From Pseudomonas sp. (GTDB taxonomy: Bacteria; Pseudomonadota; Gammaproteobacteria; Pseudomonadales; Pseudomonadaceae), in NCBI GenBank assembly GCA_029239415.1, contig JAQZAY010000186.1, positions 1 through 7,327 of the forward strand: a DNA stretch of 7,327 bases, given 5' to 3'. Shown here piece by piece: positions 1-7,148 of this stretch (position 1 is the stretch's first letter; each line of letters begins with the position of its first letter). A program made the translations under genes and the position numbers. The notes below the pieces were generated by a model. The model searched no databases. It saw only the letters and a list, made by a program, of their open reading frames with translations, and had not been told where the DNA came from.

Positions 1-1053
1 GCACGCAGCGTGGCGGAAATGCGCGACATCTACCTGCACGTGGAAAAGGAAACGGACGCCGGCATCATCGTGCGCGGCGTGAAGATGGTGGCCACCAGCG
101 CGGCCTTGTCCAACGCCACCTTCGTGGCGCAGAACAGCGCCACGCAGTACCGGGCAGGCGCCGAAGAAGACTTCGCCCTGTGCTTCATTCTGCCGATGAA
201 TGCGCCCAACCTGAAGATCATGTGCCGCCGCTCCTATGAAGCCGCGGCCTTGAGCCCGTTCGACAACCCGCTGTCCAGCCGCTTCGACGAGAACGATTCG
301 GTGCTGATCTTCGACGGCGTGCTGGTGCCGTGGGAAAACGTCCTGATCTACCGAGACGTCGAGCGGGCACGCAGTTTCTACGCCGCGTCAGGCTTCCTGA
401 ACCGCTACCCGTTGCAATCCGGTACCCGCCTGGCCGTCAAGATGGATTTCATCTGCGGGCTGCTGGCCAAGGTCCTGGCGTCCAACGGCTCCTCGGAGTT
501 CCGAGGCGTGCGCACGCGGCTGGCGGACATCGTGGCCCTGCGCAACATGCTGTGGACGTTGACCGAAAACCTGTGCCAATCGCCCGAGGTCCGGCAGGAC
601 GGCTCGGTCGTGCCACGGCTCGAGGCGGCCGCCACCGTGCGCTACTTCGGCACCCAGATGATGAGTCAGCTCAAGCCGGTCTTCAACACGATCCTTGGTG
701 GCTCGCCGATCATGCAGGTGTCCAGCTGGCTGGACATGGCCGACCCCCAGACCCGTCCGCTGATCGATGACTACTACCAGGGCACGAACCAGACGGCTTC
801 CGAGCGCATGAAGCTGATCAAGCTGCTGTGGGACGCACTGGGCAGTGAGTTCGCCGGCCGCCATGAACTCTACGAGAACAATTACGCCGGCAACAACGAG
901 CAGGTTCGTCTGGACATGCTGCGCCATTGCGAAACCGCTGGTGTGATGGACCAGTGCACGTCCCTGGTCGACCAGTGCCTGGGTGACTACGACGAGACTG
1001 GCTGGGCAGCGCCAGGCTGGCGGTTCGAACCGCGCCACCCCGAAATCCGCTGA
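1..1053 (+). CDS. HpaB/PvcC-type FADH2-dependent aromatic monooxygenase (5'-truncated by window edge)
   Basis: The reading frame is open from base 1 to a TGA at 1051-1053, giving 350 residues. HpaB-family enzymes are about 480-520 residues, so roughly the first 150 are missing to the left; the GTG at 10 is internal and not a real start. Family signatures seen in the fragment: HVEKETDAGIIV (residues 13-24), SRFDENDSVLIFDGVLVPWE (about 93-112), and near the C-terminus FAGRHELYENNYAGNNEQ followed by a MDQC...YDETGW tail. Known members (HpaB, PvcC) are two-component enzymes that use FADH2 from a separate reductase to hydroxylate phenols ortho to the OH. The usual substrate-binding residues of the N-terminal domain lie outside the window, so the substrate cannot be judged. 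It is the first visible gene of the run, 70 nt before the Rieske gene. The context of amino-acid-tailoring genes argues against plain 4-hydroxyphenylacetate catabolism. Family assignment is sure; substrate unknown. Confidence 0.93.
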   Translation, partial: ARSVAEMRDIYLHVEKETDAGIIVRGVKMVATSAALSNATFVAQNSATQYRAGAEEDFALCFILPMNAPNLKIMCRRSYEAAALSPFDNPLSSRFDENDSVLIFDGVLVPWENVLIYRDVERARSFYAASGFLNRYPLQSGTRLAVKMDFICGLLAKVLASNGSSEFRGVRTRLADIVALRNMLWTLTENLCQSPEVRQDGSVVPRLEAAATVRYFGTQMMSQLKPVFNTILGGSPIMQVSSWLDMADPQTRPLIDDYYQGTNQTASERMKLIKLLWDALGSEFAGRHELYENNYAGNNEQVRLDMLRHCETAGVMDQCTSLVDQCLGDYDETGWAAPGWRFEPRHPEIR

Positions 1054-1123: not shown

Positions 1124-2167
1124 ATGGTCTACACCGGTGAATGGAATCGTGACGAAGTCGACTACAAGGCGCTGGCGGGGCAATGGCATGTGCTGTGCCG
1201 CAGCGAGGATGTCGGTGCGCAGCAACCGCTGGCCGCCAAGCTGCTGGGCGAAGACCTGGTGCTGTGGCGAGACGAAGCAGGCCAGGTCCATGCCTGGAAA
1301 GACTACTGCGGCCATCGCGGCGCACGCCTGTCACTGGGCTGCGTCAAGCAAGGCGAAATCGAGTGCCCCTACCATGGCTGGCGCTACAACGCCCAGGGGC
1401 AGTGCACACGGGTACCCGCCCACCCGGAGCGCAGCGGGCCGGCCTCGCACCGCCTGGTGTACCGGCATCATGCGCAGGAGCGCTACGGCTACGTGTGGGT
1501 CAGCCTGGAAGCACCTCAGCGGCCCTTGCCCGAGCTGCCGCAGTGGGAGGACGACAGTTATCGGAAGGTCTACGCCGGTCCTTACCACTACAAGGCCAAC
1601 GCGCTGCGGTCGCTGGAGAACTTCATCGACGCTTCGCACTTCCCCTTCGTCCATGCTCACCTCAACGGCCTGCCGGACGCACCGGAACCGCTGAAGAAGT
1701 ACAGCGTGCACGAGGACGAGCGTGGCCTGCATTCGTCGGAGATCACCGTGTTCCAGCCCTTCGGCGATCACCGTGGCATACCGGTCAACGCTCGCTACAC
1801 CTACTCGGTGCTCAACCCCACCACCGCCTACTTCATGAAGAAGACCGGCGAAACCGAACGTTTCTGCACGTTCTTCAACGCCACACCGGTGGATGAGGCC
1901 GAGTGCATCATCTGGCTGATCGTGGCCATCAACTTCGGCCCCGAGCTGACCCTCGAGCAGATCCTCGCCCGTCAGAACACCGTGTTCGAACAGGACCGGC
2001 GCATCGTCGAGTCCCAGCGTCCCGCCCGCCTGCCACTGGACCCCCGTGCGGAAATGCACGTGGTCAGCGACCGCATGGGCCTTGAATACCGCCGCTGGAT
2101 CCAGACCCTGGGCCAGCGTGCGATCCATCAGAAGCAGGACTCCACCATCGCAACGGTTTCCCTTTGA
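1124..2167 (+). CDS. Rieske non-heme iron oxygenase, VanA/DdmC-like alpha subunit
   Basis: The product has 347 residues, typical of single-component-type Rieske monooxygenases such as vanillate O-demethylase or dicamba demethylase (about 340-350). The N-terminal Rieske [2Fe-2S] domain shows C62-x-H64 and C81-x2-H84. The catalytic domain has N166-x2-D169-x2-H172-x4-H177, and the likely third iron ligand is D291 in the VFEQDRR segment. All metal ligands expected from the family are therefore present. Such enzymes use O2 and electrons from a reductase/ferredoxin to demethylate, hydroxylate, or in cases such as PrnD and RohS oxidise amines to nitro groups. No reductase partner is encoded in the window, so electrons must come from elsewhere. 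It is followed 14 nt later by the aminotransferase. It probably tailors a small nitrogenous or aromatic product made by the neighbouring enzymes; the actual substrate cannot be read from sequence. Confidence 0.93.
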   Translation: MVYTGEWNRDEVDYKALAGQWHVLCRSEDVGAQQPLAAKLLGEDLVLWRDEAGQVHAWKDYCGHRGARLSLGCVKQGEIECPYHGWRYNAQGQCTRVPAHPERSGPASHRLVYRHHAQERYGYVWVSLEAPQRPLPELPQWEDDSYRKVYAGPYHYKANALRSLENFIDASHFPFVHAHLNGLPDAPEPLKKYSVHEDERGLHSSEITVFQPFGDHRGIPVNARYTYSVLNPTTAYFMKKTGETERFCTFFNATPVDEAECIIWLIVAINFGPELTLEQILARQNTVFEQDRRIVESQRPARLPLDPRAEMHVVSDRMGLEYRRWIQTLGQRAIHQKQDSTIATVSL

Positions 2168-2181: not shown

Positions 2182-3552
2182 ATGACCCCGAACGCTTTGC
2201 ACATGCTGGCCACGCGAGAATCCAATGCCCGTACGTACGCCAGGAACATTCCAAGAATCCTGAGCCACGGCCAGGGTGCCGAAGTCATCGACAGCGAAGG
2301 TCGGCATTACCTGGACTGCCTGGCCTGCGCAGGCGCGCTGCCCCTGGGCCATAACCACCCGTTCGTTCGCGACCGGGTGATCGCCTTTCTTCAATCGGGG
2401 CAGTTGCAGCAGGCGCTGGACATCGCCACCCCCGCCAAAGTCGATTTCATCGAGGAACTGTACCGCGCGCTTCCCGCCGAATTCGCCGCCAGCGCCCGCT
2501 TCCAGCTCTGCGGCCCTACGGGCGCGGATGCCGCCGAGGCGGCCCTCAAGCTGTTCAAGACCGCCACCGGACGGCGTCCGGTCATCGTGTTCCAGGGTGC
2601 CTACCATGGGATGACCCACGGGACGCTGGGCATGATGGGCAACCTGGCGCCCAAGCAGGCGATCAGTGGGTTGCCCGGCGAAGTGCAGTTTGTGCCCTAT
2701 CCGTATGCCTTCCGCAGTCCGTTCGGCGCGGGCATGGACGCGGCGGACACCGATACGTTGAGCCTGGCGTGCCTGGACAACCTGCTCAGCGACCCTGAAA
2801 GCGGCGTGGGCAAGCCGGCCATGGTGTTGCTCGAAGCCATTCAGGGCGAGGGGGGCTGCATTCCCGCCAGTGCCCAGTGGCTGCGTCAGGTACGCGAAAT
2901 CACCACGCGCCATCAGGTCCCGCTGGTGATCGACGAGATCCAGAGCGGGATTGGCCGCAGTGGCGACATGTTCGCCTTCGAACACGCCGGCATCACCCCG
3001 GATGCCATCCTGCTCTCCAAGGCCATCGGCGGTGGCTATCCCCTGTCGGTACTGGTCTATCTGGAGCAGTACGACCTGTGGAAACCCGGCGCGCATGCCG
3101 GCACCTTCCGGGGTAACCAGATCGCGCTGGTCAGCGGCGCCGCTACCCTGGAGTACATTCGCCAGGAGGGTCTGCTCGAGCATGTGCGTCAGGTAGGCGC
3201 TCAACTGCGCGAAGGCCTGCTTCGGCTCCAGCAGCAGCATGCCTGCATCGGCGATGTCCGGGGGCGCGGCCTGATGCTGGGCATGGAACTGGTCGACCCG
3301 GAAGGTGCGCTGGATGCCCAAGGTCATCGCCTGGCTGCCGGCGAACTGGCCACACAGGTGAAGCGGGCCTGCCTGGACGAGGGCCTGCTCATCGAGACAG
3401 GCGGGCGGCACGGTGCGGTGCTGCGGTTCCTGCCGCCGCTGGTGATCACCTGCGCACAGGTGGAGCAGATCCTGCAGCGCCTCGGCCGCGCCCTGCAGCG
3501 CACGCGGGCTCATGCGCCGCAGGTGGTCCCGACACTGGAGGCGCAGGCATGA
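2182..3552 (+). CDS. Class III PLP aminotransferase, diaminobutyrate--2-oxoglutarate type
   Basis: The 456-residue product is a fold-type I, class III (omega) aminotransferase. Visible landmarks are GPTGADAAEAALKL (111-124, phosphate-binding loop of the Dat/EctB type), GAYHGMTHG (139-147), the cofactor-contacting VIDEIQSGIGRSG (249-261), the Schiff-base lysine K280 in LLSKAIGGGYP, and GTFRGNQ (307-313). The GPTGADA segment is characteristic of diaminobutyrate aminotransferases, which move an amino group from glutamate to aspartate semialdehyde to give L-2,4-diaminobutyrate. Ornithine or diaminopropionate-type specificity cannot be excluded. Its stop overlaps the start of the N-hydroxylase (ATGA), so the two are probably translated in a fixed ratio, which suggests that the diamine made here feeds the hydroxylase. 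There are no EctA/EctC, NRPS or decarboxylase (Ddc) neighbours, so it is neither an ectoine nor a norspermidine gene. Class is very sure; substrate moderately sure. Confidence 0.92.
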   Translation: MTPNALHMLATRESNARTYARNIPRILSHGQGAEVIDSEGRHYLDCLACAGALPLGHNHPFVRDRVIAFLQSGQLQQALDIATPAKVDFIEELYRALPAEFAASARFQLCGPTGADAAEAALKLFKTATGRRPVIVFQGAYHGMTHGTLGMMGNLAPKQAISGLPGEVQFVPYPYAFRSPFGAGMDAADTDTLSLACLDNLLSDPESGVGKPAMVLLEAIQGEGGCIPASAQWLRQVREITTRHQVPLVIDEIQSGIGRSGDMFAFEHAGITPDAILLSKAIGGGYPLSVLVYLEQYDLWKPGAHAGTFRGNQIALVSGAATLEYIRQEGLLEHVRQVGAQLREGLLRLQQQHACIGDVRGRGLMLGMELVDPEGALDAQGHRLAAGELATQVKRACLDEGLLIETGGRHGAVLRFLPPLVITCAQVEQILQRLGRALQRTRAHAPQVVPTLEAQA

Positions 3553-4850
3553 ACCGGACCTCGTCTATCGTCGACGTACTGGGCATCGGTTTCGGTCCAG
3601 CCAACCTGGCGCTGGCCATCGCGCTCGAAGAACTGGCGCCTCATCTGGACGTGGCATTTCTGGAACGCCGCCTGGGACCACTCTGGCAACCCAACATGCT
3701 ACTGCCCGGCTCGGACATCCAGAACCATCCGTTGCGTGACCTGGTGACGCCGCGCAATCCACGCAGCCGCTATGGCTTCACCAACTTTCTCTTCGAGCAA
3801 GGCCGTCTCTACGAGCACCTGAACCTGCCGCTTCATTATCCGCTGCGCGAGGAGTATGCCCAGTACGTCACCTGGGTCGCCGGCTTCTTCGCCGACCGCG
3901 TGCAGTATGGCTGCGAGGCGCAGAGCGTGGCGTTGGTCGACGACGCCGGGGATGGGCGCCACTACCAGGTCACCTGCACCGACGGCCGTGTCCTGCGCGC
4001 ACGTGCCCTGGTCCTTGCACCTGGACGCACGCCGCATGTACCGGCGCCGTTTGCCGGGATCAGCGACGCCCGTATTCGCCACCTGAACGACTACCTGCCG
4101 GCACTGGCCGAAAGCATCGCGGCGACGGGCGGCCAGTCCCGGGTGGCGGTGATCGGTGGCAGCCAGAGCGCTGTGGAAATCCTGCTCCATGCCAGCGACC
4201 AGTCGGGCGTCCGGGACGTGGTGGGCTTCACACGCAACTTCGGCTACCGGCAAAAAGACACCAGTCCGTTCTCCGATGAGGTCTACTTTCCCGCCTTCGT
4301 CGACACGTTCTATCGCGCGGACCCCGACCAGAAGGCGCGGTTGCGCCGCGAGCTGGTGCACACCAACTATTCGGCGGCCGATATCGACGTCCTCAACCAG
4401 TTGTACGTGCGGCGTTATGAGCAGTCCTTGCGCGGAGAAAGCCGGCTGCAGTTGCGCACGTGCGAGGAGATCCAGGCCTGTCGACCGTCGGCCGCCCAGG
4501 TGGAAATAGAAAGCCGGCACGCCCTCGAAGGCCGTCATCATCGTCAAGGGTTCGACCTGGTCATCCTGGCCACGGGTTTTCTCGACCTTGGGCAAGGCGA
4601 ACGGCAGGAGCCTGTGCCACCGCTACTGGCGGCGTTGGTCGGCGAGCATGCGCGCGAGGGGCTGTCGGTCCAGCGCGACTACCGTATCGAGCTGGGGCAC
4701 GCCTTGCCGATCTACCTGAATGGCCTGTGCGAGTCCACGCATGGGATGGGCGATGCCGGCTCCTTCAGTTTGCTGGCGCTGCGCGCCCAGTCCATCGTCG
4801 AGTCGCTGACCGCAGGCCTGGCAGCTTCAGAGCCCGTCGATCATGCATAG
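3549..4850 (+). CDS. Flavin-dependent amine N-hydroxylase (ornithine N5-/lysine N6-monooxygenase family)
   Basis: The 433-residue product is a class B N-hydroxylating monooxygenase like PvdA, SidA, IucD and KtzI, which use FAD, NADPH and O2 to hydroxylate a side-chain amine. Motifs: FAD-binding GIGFGPANL (12-20), NADPH-binding GGSQSAVE (203-210), HTNYS (271-275) and the late ATGF (341-344). Two positions known from PvdA/SidA to bind ornithine seem changed. The Lys of the usual LKDLVT is R63, with Q58 kept five residues earlier, and the Asn of the usual SPFVNE is D243, exactly 30 residues before the conserved N273. This hints at a substrate other than free ornithine. Start is the ATG within the ATGA overlap, with GGAG at 3537-3540. 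No acyltransferase or formyltransferase follows, as would be expected for a hydroxamate siderophore, so the hydroxylamine may instead be passed to the PaiB/KtzT-like protein. Confidence 0.93.
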   Translation: MNRTSSIVDVLGIGFGPANLALAIALEELAPHLDVAFLERRLGPLWQPNMLLPGSDIQNHPLRDLVTPRNPRSRYGFTNFLFEQGRLYEHLNLPLHYPLREEYAQYVTWVAGFFADRVQYGCEAQSVALVDDAGDGRHYQVTCTDGRVLRARALVLAPGRTPHVPAPFAGISDARIRHLNDYLPALAESIAATGGQSRVAVIGGSQSAVEILLHASDQSGVRDVVGFTRNFGYRQKDTSPFSDEVYFPAFVDTFYRADPDQKARLRRELVHTNYSAADIDVLNQLYVRRYEQSLRGESRLQLRTCEEIQACRPSAAQVEIESRHALEGRHHRQGFDLVILATGFLDLGQGERQEPVPPLLAALVGEHAREGLSVQRDYRIELGHALPIYLNGLCESTHGMGDAGSFSLLALRAQSIVESLTAGLAASEPVDHA

Positions 4851-6099
4851 CCCCGGTTTGCGCGACCTGCTGATGGCGCCCTCCTGCTGGCAGGCCCAGC
4901 TGACCTGCCGCCAGATCCACACCGCGCCCTTGCCGCTGGAAACCGATGTCGCCGTCATCGGTGCCGGCCTTGGCGGCCTGGCCGCCGCGCAGCGGGCGCT
5001 CGAGGCCGGGCTGTCCGTCACGGTACTGGAGGCGAACCAGGTCGGCAGCGGCGGCAGCGGGCGAAATTCAGGTTTCGTGGTCCCCGTCCCTGCTCGTCAC
5101 ACGCCAGACTCATTGAGTCGATGCGCAGGCAGTGGCACCGGCGCATTGATGGCGGCGCTTCAAGAGGCCGTTCATGACGTGTTCGAGCAGGTGCCGAGCA
5201 CGCCTCGGCGGGGTTGGCTGCAACCGTTCACGTCGGCGGCGTCCACCCAGGCACGGACGCTGGCCACCGGTTGGCGCGCCCTGGGCGTGGAGGTCGCCGT
5301 GCTCGAAGGCGAGGCCTTGGCGCACGCGATCGGCACCTCTCGCTACACGACGGCCCTGCACTTTCCAGGCGGCGGCGCCATCGACCCCATGGCCCTGCTG
5401 CAACAGCTGACCCATGGGATCTATCACCAGGGTGGCTCGATCATCGAGCACTGCCCGGTCGAACGGATCACCCCCAAGGGCCCTGGGTTCACCTTGGAGA
5501 CGCCAGCAGGCTGCTTGAATGCACGTCGTGTCTTCATCGCCGGCAATGCCTACGGCACCGGCGCCAGCCGGATGACCCGTCGCACCGTAGGGCCGCTTTC
5601 GCTCACCTTGGCCACCTTCACCCTGCCACGCCCTGCCGCATCCAGCCCGCTGCCTTTTTCCGACACGCACAAGGACATGTGGTTTGCACGCTGGCTGGAC
5701 GCCCGTACGGTCCTGACCGGGTGTTTCGCCCTTCCGCTGCAGCGCTCGCCGAAAGCCTGCAGCGATCTGTTGCAGGCGCGCCTGGAGGGTCTGTATGGCC
5801 ACCGCCCCGCGGCACCGCGCCAACAGTGGGCCGGTTGGGTGGGGTTGACGCCTGATGGCCTGCCCAAGGTCCACGACGACAGGGGACGGATCCTCAGCTG
5901 GAGTGGCTGCAACGGCCGCGGTATCGCCCTGTCGCTGATGATGGGCCGAACCCTGATGGACCAGCTGTGCGGGCTGTCCGGGCCACGCCTTCCCCTGGCC
6001 GGGCCGGGCTGGCAACCAGGCAACGTGCTGGCCTGGCTGGCGCAGGCCGTCATCGCTCGAGACCGTTACCGACAACGCCGCGCCCTGCTGGCGTCCTGA
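4843..6099 (+). CDS. FAD-dependent amine/amino-acid oxidoreductase (DAO family, PuuB/DadA-like)
   Basis: The 418-residue product has the D-amino-acid oxidase fold: dinucleotide-binding VAVIGAGLGG (36-45) ending at acidic E63, the second FAD loop GSGGSGRNSG (68-77), TPDGLP (336-341), and the C-terminal flavin-contact segment SWSGCNGRGIALS (352-364). The short N-terminal PSCWQAQ segment before the Rossmann motif and the GSG-SGRN loop resemble gamma-glutamylputrescine oxidoreductase (PuuB, about 426 residues). The family oxidises C-N bonds of amines or amino acids to imines. Its ATG overlaps the end of the N-hydroxylase by 8 nt, with no good SD, so it probably depends on coupled re-initiation. 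No membrane segment is apparent. In this setting it could desaturate a cyclic or hydroxylated amine intermediate rather than catabolise putrescine; no puu genes are nearby. Family sure, substrate unknown. Confidence 0.9.
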   Translation: MHSPGLRDLLMAPSCWQAQLTCRQIHTAPLPLETDVAVIGAGLGGLAAAQRALEAGLSVTVLEANQVGSGGSGRNSGFVVPVPARHTPDSLSRCAGSGTGALMAALQEAVHDVFEQVPSTPRRGWLQPFTSAASTQARTLATGWRALGVEVAVLEGEALAHAIGTSRYTTALHFPGGGAIDPMALLQQLTHGIYHQGGSIIEHCPVERITPKGPGFTLETPAGCLNARRVFIAGNAYGTGASRMTRRTVGPLSLTLATFTLPRPAASSPLPFSDTHKDMWFARWLDARTVLTGCFALPLQRSPKACSDLLQARLEGLYGHRPAAPRQQWAGWVGLTPDGLPKVHDDRGRILSWSGCNGRGIALSLMMGRTLMDQLCGLSGPRLPLAGPGWQPGNVLAWLAQAVIARDRYRQRRALLAS

Positions 6100-6126
6100 G
6101 TCCCCTTTTCTGCCTGAGAGTCCACC

Positions 6127-6756
6127 ATGAGCGCCTGTCCCTTTCATTATTCGCAGTACCGCGCCACCTCACCTGAACTGATCGATCGCTTCATCGACGC
6201 TTTCCCCTTGGCGATTCTCACCTCGCACGCAGAGGGACGTTTCTGTTCCAGCCACATTCCCCTGCTGCGCCAGGCGGACGGTTCGCTGTTCGGTCATGTG
6301 GACGGGGGCAACCCCCAGTTTCGTGGACAGGACGAAGTCCATTGCCAGATCATCTTCATGGGGCCGTCTGCCTACATCCCGCCTGAGGCGTATGTCTCCT
6401 CGCAGCTACCGACCTGGAATTACCTCGCCGTGCACATGCAGGCCACCGTCCGCGTGTCCGAGAACGCCCACCAGAACCTCGAGATCCTGAAACAGACAGC
6501 GCAGCGACTGGCAACCAGCGAGCGGAGCTACCACGTCGATCCTGCCGATCCCAGGGTGCTGAAGAACCTGCCCCATATCCTCGGCCTGAGCATTCACCCG
6601 CTTTGCGTGGAGGGGCGCTTCAAGCTGTCCCAGGACAAGACCGCGCCCGACGCTTTGGCTGCGCTGAACCATCTGCTGTCCCAAGGCCTCGACAGGCACC
6701 ATGACTTGCTGGCCGACCTGCTGACCCCTGCCCCCTTGCATCCCATTGAGGCCTGA
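6127..6756 (+). CDS. PaiB/KtzT-family split-barrel protein; candidate heme-dependent N-N bond-forming enzyme
   Basis: The 209-residue product matches the PaiB family (usually annotated FMN-binding negative transcriptional regulator). Motifs: FGHVDGGNPQ (55-64), MGPSAYIPP (78-86), PTWNY (95-99) and FKLSQDK (165-171). There is no helix-turn-helix, so a DNA-binding role is unsupported by sequence. Piperazate synthase KtzT is a heme-dependent member of this family that forms the N-N bond of piperazate from N5-hydroxyornithine. Here the gene shares an operon with an amine N-hydroxylase, the same pairing as KtzI/KtzT. H57 in the GH-x3-GNP segment is a candidate axial heme ligand (inference; needs alignment to KtzT). 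The neighbouring residues also fit ordinary PaiB proteins, so sequence alone does not prove the enzyme role. A start at ATG 6127 follows a modest GAGAG (6116-6120) after a 27-nt gap. Family very sure; N-N synthase role plausible. Confidence 0.9.
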   Translation: MSACPFHYSQYRATSPELIDRFIDAFPLAILTSHAEGRFCSSHIPLLRQADGSLFGHVDGGNPQFRGQDEVHCQIIFMGPSAYIPPEAYVSSQLPTWNYLAVHMQATVRVSENAHQNLEILKQTAQRLATSERSYHVDPADPRVLKNLPHILGLSIHPLCVEGRFKLSQDKTAPDALAALNHLLSQGLDRHHDLLADLLTPAPLHPIEA

Positions 6757-6758
6757 CC

Positions 6759-7148
6759 ATGCCCATCGTGCGTATAGAAGACCCCGTACAGCGAACGCCT
6801 GAAACACGTCAGGCGGTCATCGAGACGGTTTACCGTTGCCTGCGACACGTCTTCAAGGTGAGCGACGAGGAGCTGCAAGCGCGTTATCACACCTACGCCC
6901 CTCAGGACTTTCGCAGCCCAGGGGACTGCGAGGCCTTCATTCAGGTCGAGATCACCGTCTTCAAAGGGCGCACCCTGGAAACCAAGCGTCGGTTGTACCA
7001 GGCCCTCAGCCAGGCGTTGTCGGAGCAGCTTCACCTGCCGATGGAGGCGGTGCTGATCCTGCTCGACGAGCGTGAGGGTGAGAACTGGGGCATGCGCGGC
7101 GGCATACCCGCCTGCGAGATCGACTTCGGGTATGCCATCGACATCTAG
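6759..7148 (+). CDS. Tautomerase-superfamily protein (Pro-1, MSAD-like length)
   Basis: The 129-residue product begins Met-Pro-Ile, so after Met removal it carries the N-terminal catalytic proline of the tautomerase/4-oxalocrotonate superfamily. Its length and layout fit the malonate semialdehyde decarboxylase (MSAD)-like, two beta-alpha-beta unit group: VFKGRTLETK (67-76) sits where MSAD has its R-P-R segment, and NWGMRGG (109-115) resembles the Trp-containing C-terminal region. The first MSAD arginine appears to be K69, the second R71 is kept. Known members isomerise enols, hydrate unsaturated acids or decarboxylate beta-keto acids. The ATG lies 2 nt after the PaiB-like stop, with GAGG at 6748-6751, so it is tightly coupled to that gene. 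It may move a double bond in an imine, hydrazone or enol product of the neighbouring oxidases; this is inference. It is the last gene before the terminator. Confidence 0.88.
   Translation: MPIVRIEDPVQRTPETRQAVIETVYRCLRHVFKVSDEELQARYHTYAPQDFRSPGDCEAFIQVEITVFKGRTLETKRRLYQALSQALSEQLHLPMEAVLILLDEREGENWGMRGGIPACEIDFGYAIDI

What the first reader, a model, noticed from the sequence alone, without database searches (positions are those of the whole stretch)
3549..6756. Candidate N-N bond-forming cassette: amine N-hydroxylase plus PaiB/KtzT-family protein
Seen: an ornithine/lysine-type N-hydroxylase (3549-4850) and a PaiB-family protein (6127-6756) in the same tight gene run. Established: in kutzneride biosynthesis KtzI makes N5-hydroxyornithine and KtzT, a PaiB-family heme enzyme, closes the N-N bond to give piperazate. 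Inference: the PaiB annotation here hides an N-N-forming enzyme, in a pseudomonad and next to an unusual set of oxidases. The characterised examples I know are from actinomycetes, so a Gram-negative version with no NRPS beside it would be worth knowing.
Basis: partly seen in the sequence, partly recalled or inferred. Interest (0 to 1): 0.78.

Follow-up and report, generated by a model that had tools for sequence, protein, structure and literature searches.

The report
Diaminobutyrate N-hydroxylase plus heme PaiB-like enzyme
This operon in a pseudomonad looks like an undescribed assembly line that turns a small amino acid into an N-hydroxylated form and then hands it to a heme enzyme that may join two nitrogen atoms, which would be a new natural route to a nitrogen-nitrogen bonded ring.

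Summary
The two genes are real, at the stated places, in a tight operon. They stay together: 26 of 79 fetched PaiB loci carry the N-hydroxylase close by, in ten proteobacterial genera, and in a Streptomyces relative the two are fused. (1) The hydroxylase is not of the ornithine/lysine type: it has Arg and Asp where PvdA/KtzI have Lys and Asn; a diaminobutyrate-type transaminase lies beside it in 25 of 25 non-fused loci, and relatives in Xenorhabdus and Vibrio share a cluster with EctB and a MetRS-like, possibly hydrazine-forming, protein. Best substrate: L-2,4-diaminobutyrate. (2) The PaiB-like protein is neither a PaiB regulator nor a KtzT-type piperazate synthase: AU tests reject both placements; it keeps the heme His and Thr-Lys dyad but has Asp-Leu-Arg where synthases have Asn-Ala-Tyr. 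Best explanation: N4-hydroxy-diaminobutyrate is closed to pyrazolidine-3-carboxylate, then oxidised by the Rieske, HpaB and FAD enzymes. A NohD-like dehydratase role is the main rival. New variant of a known kind.

The parts
1..1053 (+). 3' part of an HpaB-type flavin-dependent phenol hydroxylase (whole gene 508 aa at L003:12005-13531)
   Evidence: PF03241/PF11794; full protein TIGR02310 560 bits, below the 885 cut-off; best solved relatives HpaB 6b1b and 6qyh. Present in 21 of 26 loci with the hydroxylase
1124..2167 (+). Rieske non-heme iron oxygenase (VanA/SxtT-like)
   Evidence: PF00355, PF19112; best solved relatives SxtT and SxtDIOX, E about 1e-61; present in 25 of the 26 loci that hold the N-hydroxylase
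2182..3552 (+). L-2,4-diaminobutyrate:2-oxoglutarate transaminase family (Dat type)
   Evidence: TIGR00709 dat 479 bits over the 401.6 cut-off; best solved relative diaminobutyrate transaminase 6rl5
3549..4850 (+). FAD/NADPH N-hydroxylase, proposed diaminobutyrate N4-hydroxylase; Arg63 (3735-3737) and Asp243 (4275-4277) replace the Lys and Asn of ornithine/lysine hydroxylases
   Evidence: PF13434; residue tables; a class III transaminase beside it in 25 of 26 loci (not the fused L030), 8 of 8 sister places and 4 of 5 plasmid loci (not L106)
4843..6099 (+). DAO-family FAD oxidase, nearest curated model L-pipecolate oxidase (far below cut-off); accessory, found in 17 of 26 loci
   Evidence: PF01266 141 bits; NF050086 AmaA 137 bits, cut-off 600; presence table
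6127..6756 (+). PaiB-fold (FMN_bind_2) proposed heme enzyme of a third lineage; His57 6295-6297, Asp59 6301-6303, Leu94 6406-6408, Thr96 6412-6414, Arg143 6553-6555, Lys166 6622-6624
6759..7148 (+). 4-oxalocrotonate-tautomerase-like protein
   Evidence: PF14552/PF01361; a relative in 20 of 26 loci, none in the three Photorhabdus loci

Best explanation
The operon makes a small N-N bonded ring acid from diaminobutyrate. Step 1: the transaminase makes L-2,4-diaminobutyrate from aspartate-4-semialdehyde (inferred from family, strong). Step 2: the flavin N-hydroxylase makes N4-hydroxy-L-diaminobutyrate (inferred from gene pairing and substrate-site residues, fairly strong). Step 3: the PaiB-fold heme enzyme binds the hydroxylamine on heme (His57 as ligand, Thr96-Lys166 dyad), expels water and lets the alpha-amine attack the N4 nitrogen, giving pyrazolidine-3-carboxylate (5-aza-proline) (inferred). 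Step 4: the pipecolate-oxidase-like FAD enzyme where present, the Rieske oxygenase and HpaB oxidise and hydroxylate the ring towards a pyrazoline or hydroxypyrazole carboxylate; tautomerase and TauE exporter finish and export it (speculative). Nothing here has been shown biochemically.
For: Pairing: 26 of 79 PaiB loci hold the hydroxylase, 25 of these 26 also the transaminase and Rieske gene; fused in Streptomyces sp. TSRI0281 (L030) and, by eye on the residues before the PaiB part, in P0082, P0083, P0086, P0087 of the neighbouring clade. Substrate: two diaminobutyrate-transaminase lineages accompany one hydroxylase family (Dat type here; EctB above its equivalog cut-off in L094, L098, L031, L044, L105, L107). 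In Xenorhabdus plasmid pXT29 (L105) and a Vibrio halioticoli plasmid (L108) that hydroxylase and EctB share a cluster with a MetRS-like protein and a cupin. PMC2922099 (passages) describes MetRS paralogues always found with a cupin and an L-lysine 6-monooxygenase, some with diaminobutyrate transaminase; the review PMC11705231 says Apy11 hydroxylates diaminobutyrate for the hydrazine synthetase Apy9 (passage), and that KtzT (slightly) and PAI2 turn N4-hydroxy-diaminobutyrate into the pyrazolidine amino acid. Logic: mere dehydration of N4-hydroxy-diaminobutyrate would give back aspartate semialdehyde. Heme His, Asn62, Thr96, Lys166 are the same in 41 of 41 aligned clade rows.
Against: At three sites mutated in NohD crystal structures (A59N, V96A, R144Y; titles; the new letters are the synthase ones, so I take them as a swap towards the synthase) the window has Asp, Leu, Arg: none is the synthase residue, and Arg is the NohD residue. 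51 of 79 loci with related proteins have no N-hydroxylase in the held DNA (7 of the 51 hold under 12 kb), so the lineage is not tied to hydroxylamines everywhere. PipS only dehydrates some non-native hydroxylamines. The MetRS-like protein of L105 passes NCBI's methionine--tRNA ligase cut-off (671.6 over 553), so its hydrazine-synthetase role is an inference from neighbours. Leisingera L106 has the hydroxylase without a transaminase hit. HpaB and Rieske need substrates that this route supplies only after further unproven oxidation. In Denitrobaculum (L044) the set lies with PobA and PcaHG genes, unexplained.
Confidence: 0.48

Rival explanations
1. N-hydroxylamine dehydratase, as in NohD: the PaiB-like protein removes water from the hydroxylamine to give an imine, so that hydroxylase plus PaiB oxidise an amine to an imine/aldehyde for the Rieske/HpaB steps.
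Against: AU test rejects one clade with NohD (p 0.0008, one NohD row). Asp59 and Leu94 differ from NohD Ala59 and Val96. If the substrate is N4-hydroxy-diaminobutyrate the product is aspartate semialdehyde imine, which undoes the transaminase.
Confidence: 0.25
2. A true piperazate pathway: ornithine to N5-hydroxyornithine to piperazate.
For: Same superfamilies and same heme ligand and dyad as KtzI/KtzT-type pairs. The review reports didomain NMO-PZS enzymes that make piperazate, and fused NMO-PaiB proteins lie near the window protein in the tree.
Against: Hydroxylase has Arg with Asp or Glu, not Lys/Asn, in all 26 cluster rows aligned (24 with Asp, plus L031 Asp and L044 Glu); diaminobutyrate-type transaminase beside it; PaiB-like protein outside the PZS clade (AU p 0.0007) and without the PZS residues; no NRPS seen. 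Whether the reported didomain enzymes belong to the L030 type was not established.
Confidence: 0.07
3. Other heme chemistry on a hydroxylamine or oxime, for example aldoxime to nitrile, or N-O or C-N ring closure.
For: Pairing with the hydroxylase is well supported while the pocket type (Asp-Leu-Arg) is uncharacterised; the review cites a report, which it calls in need of proof, that PAI2 forms a C-N bond.
Against: No nitrilase or amidase family among the seven window genes; no nitrile formation by this fold in the passages read.
Confidence: 0.13
4. An ordinary PaiB-type heme-binding regulator that happens to sit in the operon.
For: Pfam family and the regulator names that the named hits carry. 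PaiB 9vyc binds heme without N-N activity (PMC13274692, passage).
Against: Own lineage (AU p 0.0085 and 0.016), steady place downstream of the hydroxylase in 25 of 26 loci (upstream in L044), fusion to hydroxylases in related proteins and to an MFS transporter in Bradyrhizobium; the same genome has a separate PaiB-like paralogue.
Confidence: 0.07

Closest known systems
KtzI-KtzT / PipS piperazate synthesis (actinomycetes)
   Same: Flavin N-hydroxylase plus PaiB-fold protein; heme His, Asn, Thr-Lys dyad
   Different: Separate PaiB lineage (AU p 0.0007), Asp-Leu-Arg instead of Asn-Ala-Tyr, hydroxylase of another type, diaminobutyrate-type transaminase present, no NRPS seen, extra Rieske/HpaB/DAO/tautomerase genes
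NohD N-hydroxylamine dehydratase (PDB 9oqs and mutants; only PDB titles and printed sequence pieces seen, no paper found)
   Same: Nearest solved sequence, same fold, Arg at one of three switch sites, Thr-Lys dyad
   Different: Ala59/Val96 in NohD are Asp59/Leu94 here; not one clade (AU p 0.0008, one row)
Fused NMO-PaiB proteins (L030 type)
   Same: Near neighbours in the tree, Asp-Leu and mostly Arg pocket, partner N-hydroxylase
   Different: The L030 hydroxylase part is PvdA/KtzI-like (Lys/Asn), fused, beside an adenylation/NRPS-like ORF (by eye); function of this very type not verified here
Apy9/Apy11-type hydrazine synthetase pathways (actinopyridazinone)
   Same: N4-hydroxy-diaminobutyrate as activated precursor (review); relatives of the window hydroxylase occur with MetRS-like and cupin genes
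   Different: The N-N former there is a MetRS-cupin enzyme acting between two amino acids; here a PaiB-fold protein, ring closure within one molecule proposed. Apy sequences were not compared
PaiB of Bacillus stearothermophilus (2ol5, 9vyc)
   Same: Fold, heme His, Asn, Thr, Lys
   Different: Different clade, pocket Ala-Val, Asn after KLSQ

Membership tests
Piperazate synthase (KtzT/PipS) | Heme-ligating His in GHMNRANP and following Asn | tested here: met
   His57 and Asn62 in 41 of 41 clade rows, aligned with 121 of 121 PZS-set rows
Piperazate synthase (KtzT/PipS) | Thr-Lys catalytic dyad | tested here: met
   Thr96 and Lys166 in 41 of 41 rows
Piperazate synthase (KtzT/PipS) | Synthase residues Asn63, Ala100, Tyr150 (SbPZS numbers) and Met before FKLSQ | tested here: not met
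   Window Asp59, Leu94, Arg143, Arg164; PZS set (9qlk plus 120 hits to PipS, not all proven synthases) N 121/121, A 120/121, Y 121/121, M 118/121
Piperazate synthase (KtzT/PipS) | Groups with known synthases in a tree | tested here: not met
   AU p 0.0007 against one clade with 7 PZS rows; groups were named after the tree was seen
Piperazate synthase (KtzT/PipS) | Partner is an ornithine N5-hydroxylase | tested here: not met
   Sequence test only: Lys to Arg63, Asn to Asp243, Ser site replaced; activity not assayed
Piperazate synthase (KtzT/PipS) | Makes an N-N bond | not testable with these tools
   needs an enzyme assay
NohD N-hydroxylamine dehydratase | Same clade as NohD | tested here: not met
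   AU p 0.0008; only one NohD row, a printed fragment
NohD N-hydroxylamine dehydratase | Ala59/Val96/Arg144 pocket | tested here: not met
   Asp59/Leu94/Arg143: one of three shared
PaiB regulator | Groups with Bacillus-type PaiB or the Pseudomonas PaiB-like paralogue | tested here: not met
   AU p 0.0085 (2 rows) and 0.016 (4 rows)
Ornithine/lysine N-hydroxylase (SidA, PvdA, KtzI, MbtG) | Lys and Asn that bind the substrate (SidA Lys107, Asn293) | tested here: not met
   Arg63 and Asp243 against Lys/Asn in PvdA, MbtG, KtzI; role of Lys107/Asn293 from passages of PMC7347517 and PMC10696468; that these SidA numbers are the same columns is my reading of the printed alignment to a fungal-type ornithine hydroxylase
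Diaminobutyrate transaminase family (TIGR00709) | Score over the curated cut-off | tested here: met
   479.1 bits, cut-off 401.6
HpaB 4-hydroxyphenylacetate 3-monooxygenase (TIGR02310) | Score over the curated cut-off | tested here: not met
   full protein 560 bits, cut-off 885; same superfamily

The most novel reading that the evidence does not exclude
A third, uncharacterised lineage of the PaiB fold (pocket Asp-Leu-Arg) is a heme N-N synthase for N4-hydroxy-diaminobutyrate, giving nature's dedicated route to pyrazolidine-3-carboxylate and, after Rieske/HpaB/FAD oxidation, to free pyrazole-type acids, in Gram-negative bacteria and without NRPS.
Probability: 0.38. Interest if true: 0.85.

Novelty: new variant of a known kind. 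Interest (0 to 1): 0.62.

Why it matters
Few enzyme classes are known to join two nitrogens. Here a conserved operon in ten proteobacterial genera, annotated as siderophore-type hydroxylase plus 'transcriptional regulator', pairs a diaminobutyrate-type N-hydroxylase with a probable heme protein that is neither the known synthase nor the known regulator. It gives a cheap, direct test of how one fold is tuned between N-N bond formation and dehydration (three switch residues of a third type), and it may uncover a family of small pyrazoline/pyrazole acids that genome mining for NRPS clusters would miss.

Tried and rejected
Rejected: membership in the KtzT/PipS clade, in NohD and in PaiB (AU tests; that tree held seven PZS, one NohD, two Bacillus-type PaiB and four PaiB-like rows, some of them fragments as printed by the PDB search; the groups were named after the quick tree had been seen, so the p values are somewhat flattering).

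Rejected: the 3,6-dihydroxy-1,2-benzisoxazole cluster of Photorhabdus/Chromobacterium (PMC11481567; abstract, passages and section 6 seen): its genes (DhbBC ring-hydroxylating dioxygenase, DhbD, DhbF) do not match these.

Led nowhere: paper searches for this gene combination and for NohD listed no description of either; the library holds open-licence papers only, so absence there is weak. Hu et al. 2019 on didomain enzymes is not held, so whether its didomain proteins are of the L030 type is open; the search did not settle it. A class-wide sample (369 genomes) had PaiB (E <= 1e-30) and hydroxylase (E <= 1e-80) matches only in the window's own genome: the cluster is rare and patchy.

Considered: HpaB as evidence for an aromatic pathway (its RTPDY and NH motifs match HpaB; that these are the catalytic residues is recalled, not looked up). 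It is missing from L006-L008 and from the whole genomes G122 and G188 at E <= 1e-150, so it cannot define the core.

Weak points told: the genome-contig scan used QLPTWNY as one of three patterns, which favours Leu94 in those loci; the protein searches behind most residue counts did not, but 9 of the 63 Asp-Leu rows are loci from that scan (L015, L018, L022, L023, L026, L028, L029, L031, L044), and the fused L030 is another. Rows chosen: 41 of the 80 hits for A1, 24 hits plus the window and 7 loci as 'cluster', 30 of the 120 hits listed (24 stand-alone, 4 fused, P0131 and P0155), all 120. P0078-P0080, L056 and L072, which were in the tree, were left out of the counts. P0131, a hit, fell with the PaiB-like proteins and is counted there.


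Full report
What is there. The window (G000:C62:24478-31804; two base differences to the held genome) carries seven same-strand genes with overlaps of up to 8 bp or gaps of up to 27 bp by the start codons chosen here, except 70 bp between HpaB and the chosen Rieske start: HpaB-type hydroxylase (3' part), Rieske oxygenase, class III transaminase, N-hydroxylase, DAO-type FAD oxidase, PaiB/FMN_bind_2 protein, tautomerase. Upstream in the same genome lie a TauE/SafE exporter, an AFG1/ZapE-like ATPase and a PEP-mutase/methylisocitrate-lyase-like protein and a divergent LysR-like gene (named by eye; no profile was run on it).

Do the two genes belong together? A scan of one genome per species with a 41-row alignment of the PaiB clade gave 79 loci. 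26 of 79 hold the N-hydroxylase within the held DNA, 2 (L010, L014) begin at a contig end inside the oxidase gene, and 51 have none (7 of these 51 hold less than 12 kb). The 26 are from Pseudomonas, Chromobacterium, Photorhabdus, Azohydromonas, Paraburkholderia, Caballeronia, Mycetohabitans, Stenoxybacter, Bradyrhizobium, Denitrobaculum and one Streptomyces. 25 of the 26 (all but Streptomyces) also hold the Rieske and transaminase genes; HpaB is in 21, the window-type oxidase in 17, the window-type tautomerase in 20 of 26. In 25 of 26 the PaiB part follows the hydroxylase; in L044 it precedes it. In Pseudomonas, a sample of 249 genomes had window-type PaiB (E <= 1e-30) in 4, and the same 4 had the hydroxylase at 70% identity or more, on the same contig strand within about 1.3 kb by coordinates; two of them were also fetched (L102, and L103, which is the same record stretch as L013). 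In a sample of 369 genomes of the class only the window's own genome had either.

Which lineage is the PaiB-like protein? In a careful tree of 46 rows the cluster proteins form one clade (99/94 support, 18 rows); a quick tree of 89 rows agrees. AU tests reject holding them together with piperazate synthases (p 0.0007), with NohD (0.0008), with Bacillus-type PaiB (0.0085) and with the PaiB-like paralogues including the one of this genome (0.016) (groups named). Their neighbours are stand-alone proteins, many from Flavobacteria, and a group containing proteins fused to N-hydroxylases (L030, P0082, P0083, P0086, P0087); the fork that unites them has support 93 and is not starred.

The partner hydroxylase. 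It matches PvdA best among solved structures, but at the substrate site 24 aligned rows of clusters have Arg and Asp where PvdA, KtzI and MbtG have Lys and Asn; L031 has Arg/Asp, L044 Arg/Glu, and the eight sister places Arg with Asp (3) or Glu (5). Of the plasmid relatives, L104 has Asp, L106 and L108 Glu, L107 Ser, all with Arg (L105 was not in that residue table). In SidA, Lys107 pairs with the substrate carboxylate and Asn293 helps bind ornithine (passages of PMC7347517 and PMC10696468). The fused Streptomyces hydroxylase has Lys/Asn and groups with PvdA, KtzI and MbtG, away from the window type (long branches). The PaiB lineage has therefore been paired with two different hydroxylase types.

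The substrate. Sister hydroxylases (47-53% identical) in 7 further Pseudomonas genomes (8 places, all fetched as L094-L101) have no window-type PaiB, but each of the eight lies beside a class III transaminase. The two of these eight that I tested (L094, L098) and those of L031, L044, L105 and L107 score above the EctB diaminobutyrate-transaminase equivalog cut-off, whereas the window, L018 and L104 transaminases belong to the other, Dat-type diaminobutyrate family, above its subfamily cut-off. Two lineages of diaminobutyrate transaminase with one hydroxylase family is strong context for L-diaminobutyrate. Relatives on plasmids of Xenorhabdus sp. TCT-1 (L105) and Vibrio halioticoli (L108) lie in clusters with a MetRS-like protein, cupin, GNAT, adenylation domain and EctB; in Leisingera (L106) with a cupin and a MetRS-like piece of 91 aligned residues, but no transaminase hit. 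The L105 MetRS-like protein passes NCBI's methionine--tRNA ligase cut-off, so it is a hydrazine synthetase only by context: PMC2922099 (passages) describes MetRS paralogues that occur without exception with a cupin and an L-lysine 6-monooxygenase gene, some with diaminobutyrate transaminase, and the review PMC11705231 reports Apy11 as a diaminobutyrate hydroxylase feeding Apy9 (passage). Thus the family's product appears to be a nitrogen donor for N-N bonds elsewhere.

Mechanism proposed. Diaminobutyrate, N4-hydroxylation, then ring closure on heme to pyrazolidine-3-carboxylate. KtzT (slightly) and PAI2 do this reaction on N4-hydroxy-diaminobutyrate as a side activity (PMC11705231 section 13, first of two parts read), and PMC12150314 (passage) says the range of such synthases is limited to five- and six-membered hydrazino acids. 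The dehydratase alternative would regenerate aspartate semialdehyde. The later oxidations are guesses: the FAD enzyme's nearest curated model is L-pipecolate oxidase (far below cut-off), the Rieske enzyme's nearest solved relatives are SxtT/SxtDIOX, HpaB keeps motifs of phenol hydroxylases. Shown: genes, synteny, lineage, residues, predicted fold. Inferred: heme binding, substrates, N-N closure, product, export.

Against. Arg143 is the NohD state; none of the three synthase switch residues is present; related PaiB proteins without hydroxylases nearby are common (51 of 79 loci); L044 contains PobA and PcaHG genes beside the set; I found no biochemical datum for this lineage. I therefore give the N-N reading 0.48 and a NohD-like reading 0.25.

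Comparison and verdict. It works like a KtzI-KtzT pair but is not a member of the KtzT family by tree and residues; the hydroxylase is not an ornithine/lysine hydroxylase by residues. I found no description of this gene set in the searched library. New variant of a known kind, interest 0.62.

Noticed in passing
L105:3518-15880 (Xenorhabdus sp. TCT-1 plasmid pXT29) and L108:3661-14572 (Vibrio halioticoli plasmid): Plasmid-borne clusters with MetRS-like, cupin, GNAT, adenylation, DAO, N-hydroxylase and EctB genes: possibly hydrazine-synthetase pathways built on N4-hydroxy-diaminobutyrate in Gram-negative bacteria.
   Followed up: partly
L094-L101 (eight places in seven Pseudomonas genomes): Transaminase plus N-hydroxylase operons without window-type PaiB; profiled examples carry GST and EamA exporter genes (L094) or GNAT and LysE exporter genes (L098). 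Look like producers of a small N-hydroxy amino acid.
   Followed up: partly
L031:10013-12025 (Bradyrhizobium sp. BR 10289): PaiB-like domain fused to an MFS transporter (670 aa) next to the N-hydroxylase.
   Followed up: no
L044:13087-17125 (Denitrobaculum tricleocarpae): Protocatechuate 3,4-dioxygenase subunits and a 4-hydroxybenzoate hydroxylase (beta subunit and PobA over their equivalog cut-offs) interleaved with Rieske, PaiB, N-hydroxylase and EctB genes; unexplained.
   Followed up: no
L003:9956-11098 and counterparts in 20 of the 26 loci with the hydroxylase: An AFG1/ZapE-like ATPase gene travels with the operon, either upstream of TauE or just after PaiB; role unknown, perhaps self-protection.
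   Followed up: no
L067:6376-10240 (P. fluorescens PS910): AFG1 and TauE relatives and a partial PaiB match without hydroxylase in the held DNA: looks like a decayed cluster.
   Followed up: no
G000:C57:171508-172062 (L002): The genome has a second PaiB-like gene (about 30% identical) that falls with ordinary PaiB-like proteins.
   Followed up: yes
window 2719 and 2728: Window and held genome differ by C/T and G/A in the transaminase gene, changing two residues (Pro/Ser and Ala/Thr).
   Followed up: partly
L104:4074-12451 (Mycetohabitans rhizoxinica HKI 454 plasmid pBRH01): The cluster (without the DAO gene) lies on the megaplasmid; 9 Mycetohabitans plasmid records hold the hydroxylase.
   Followed up: partly
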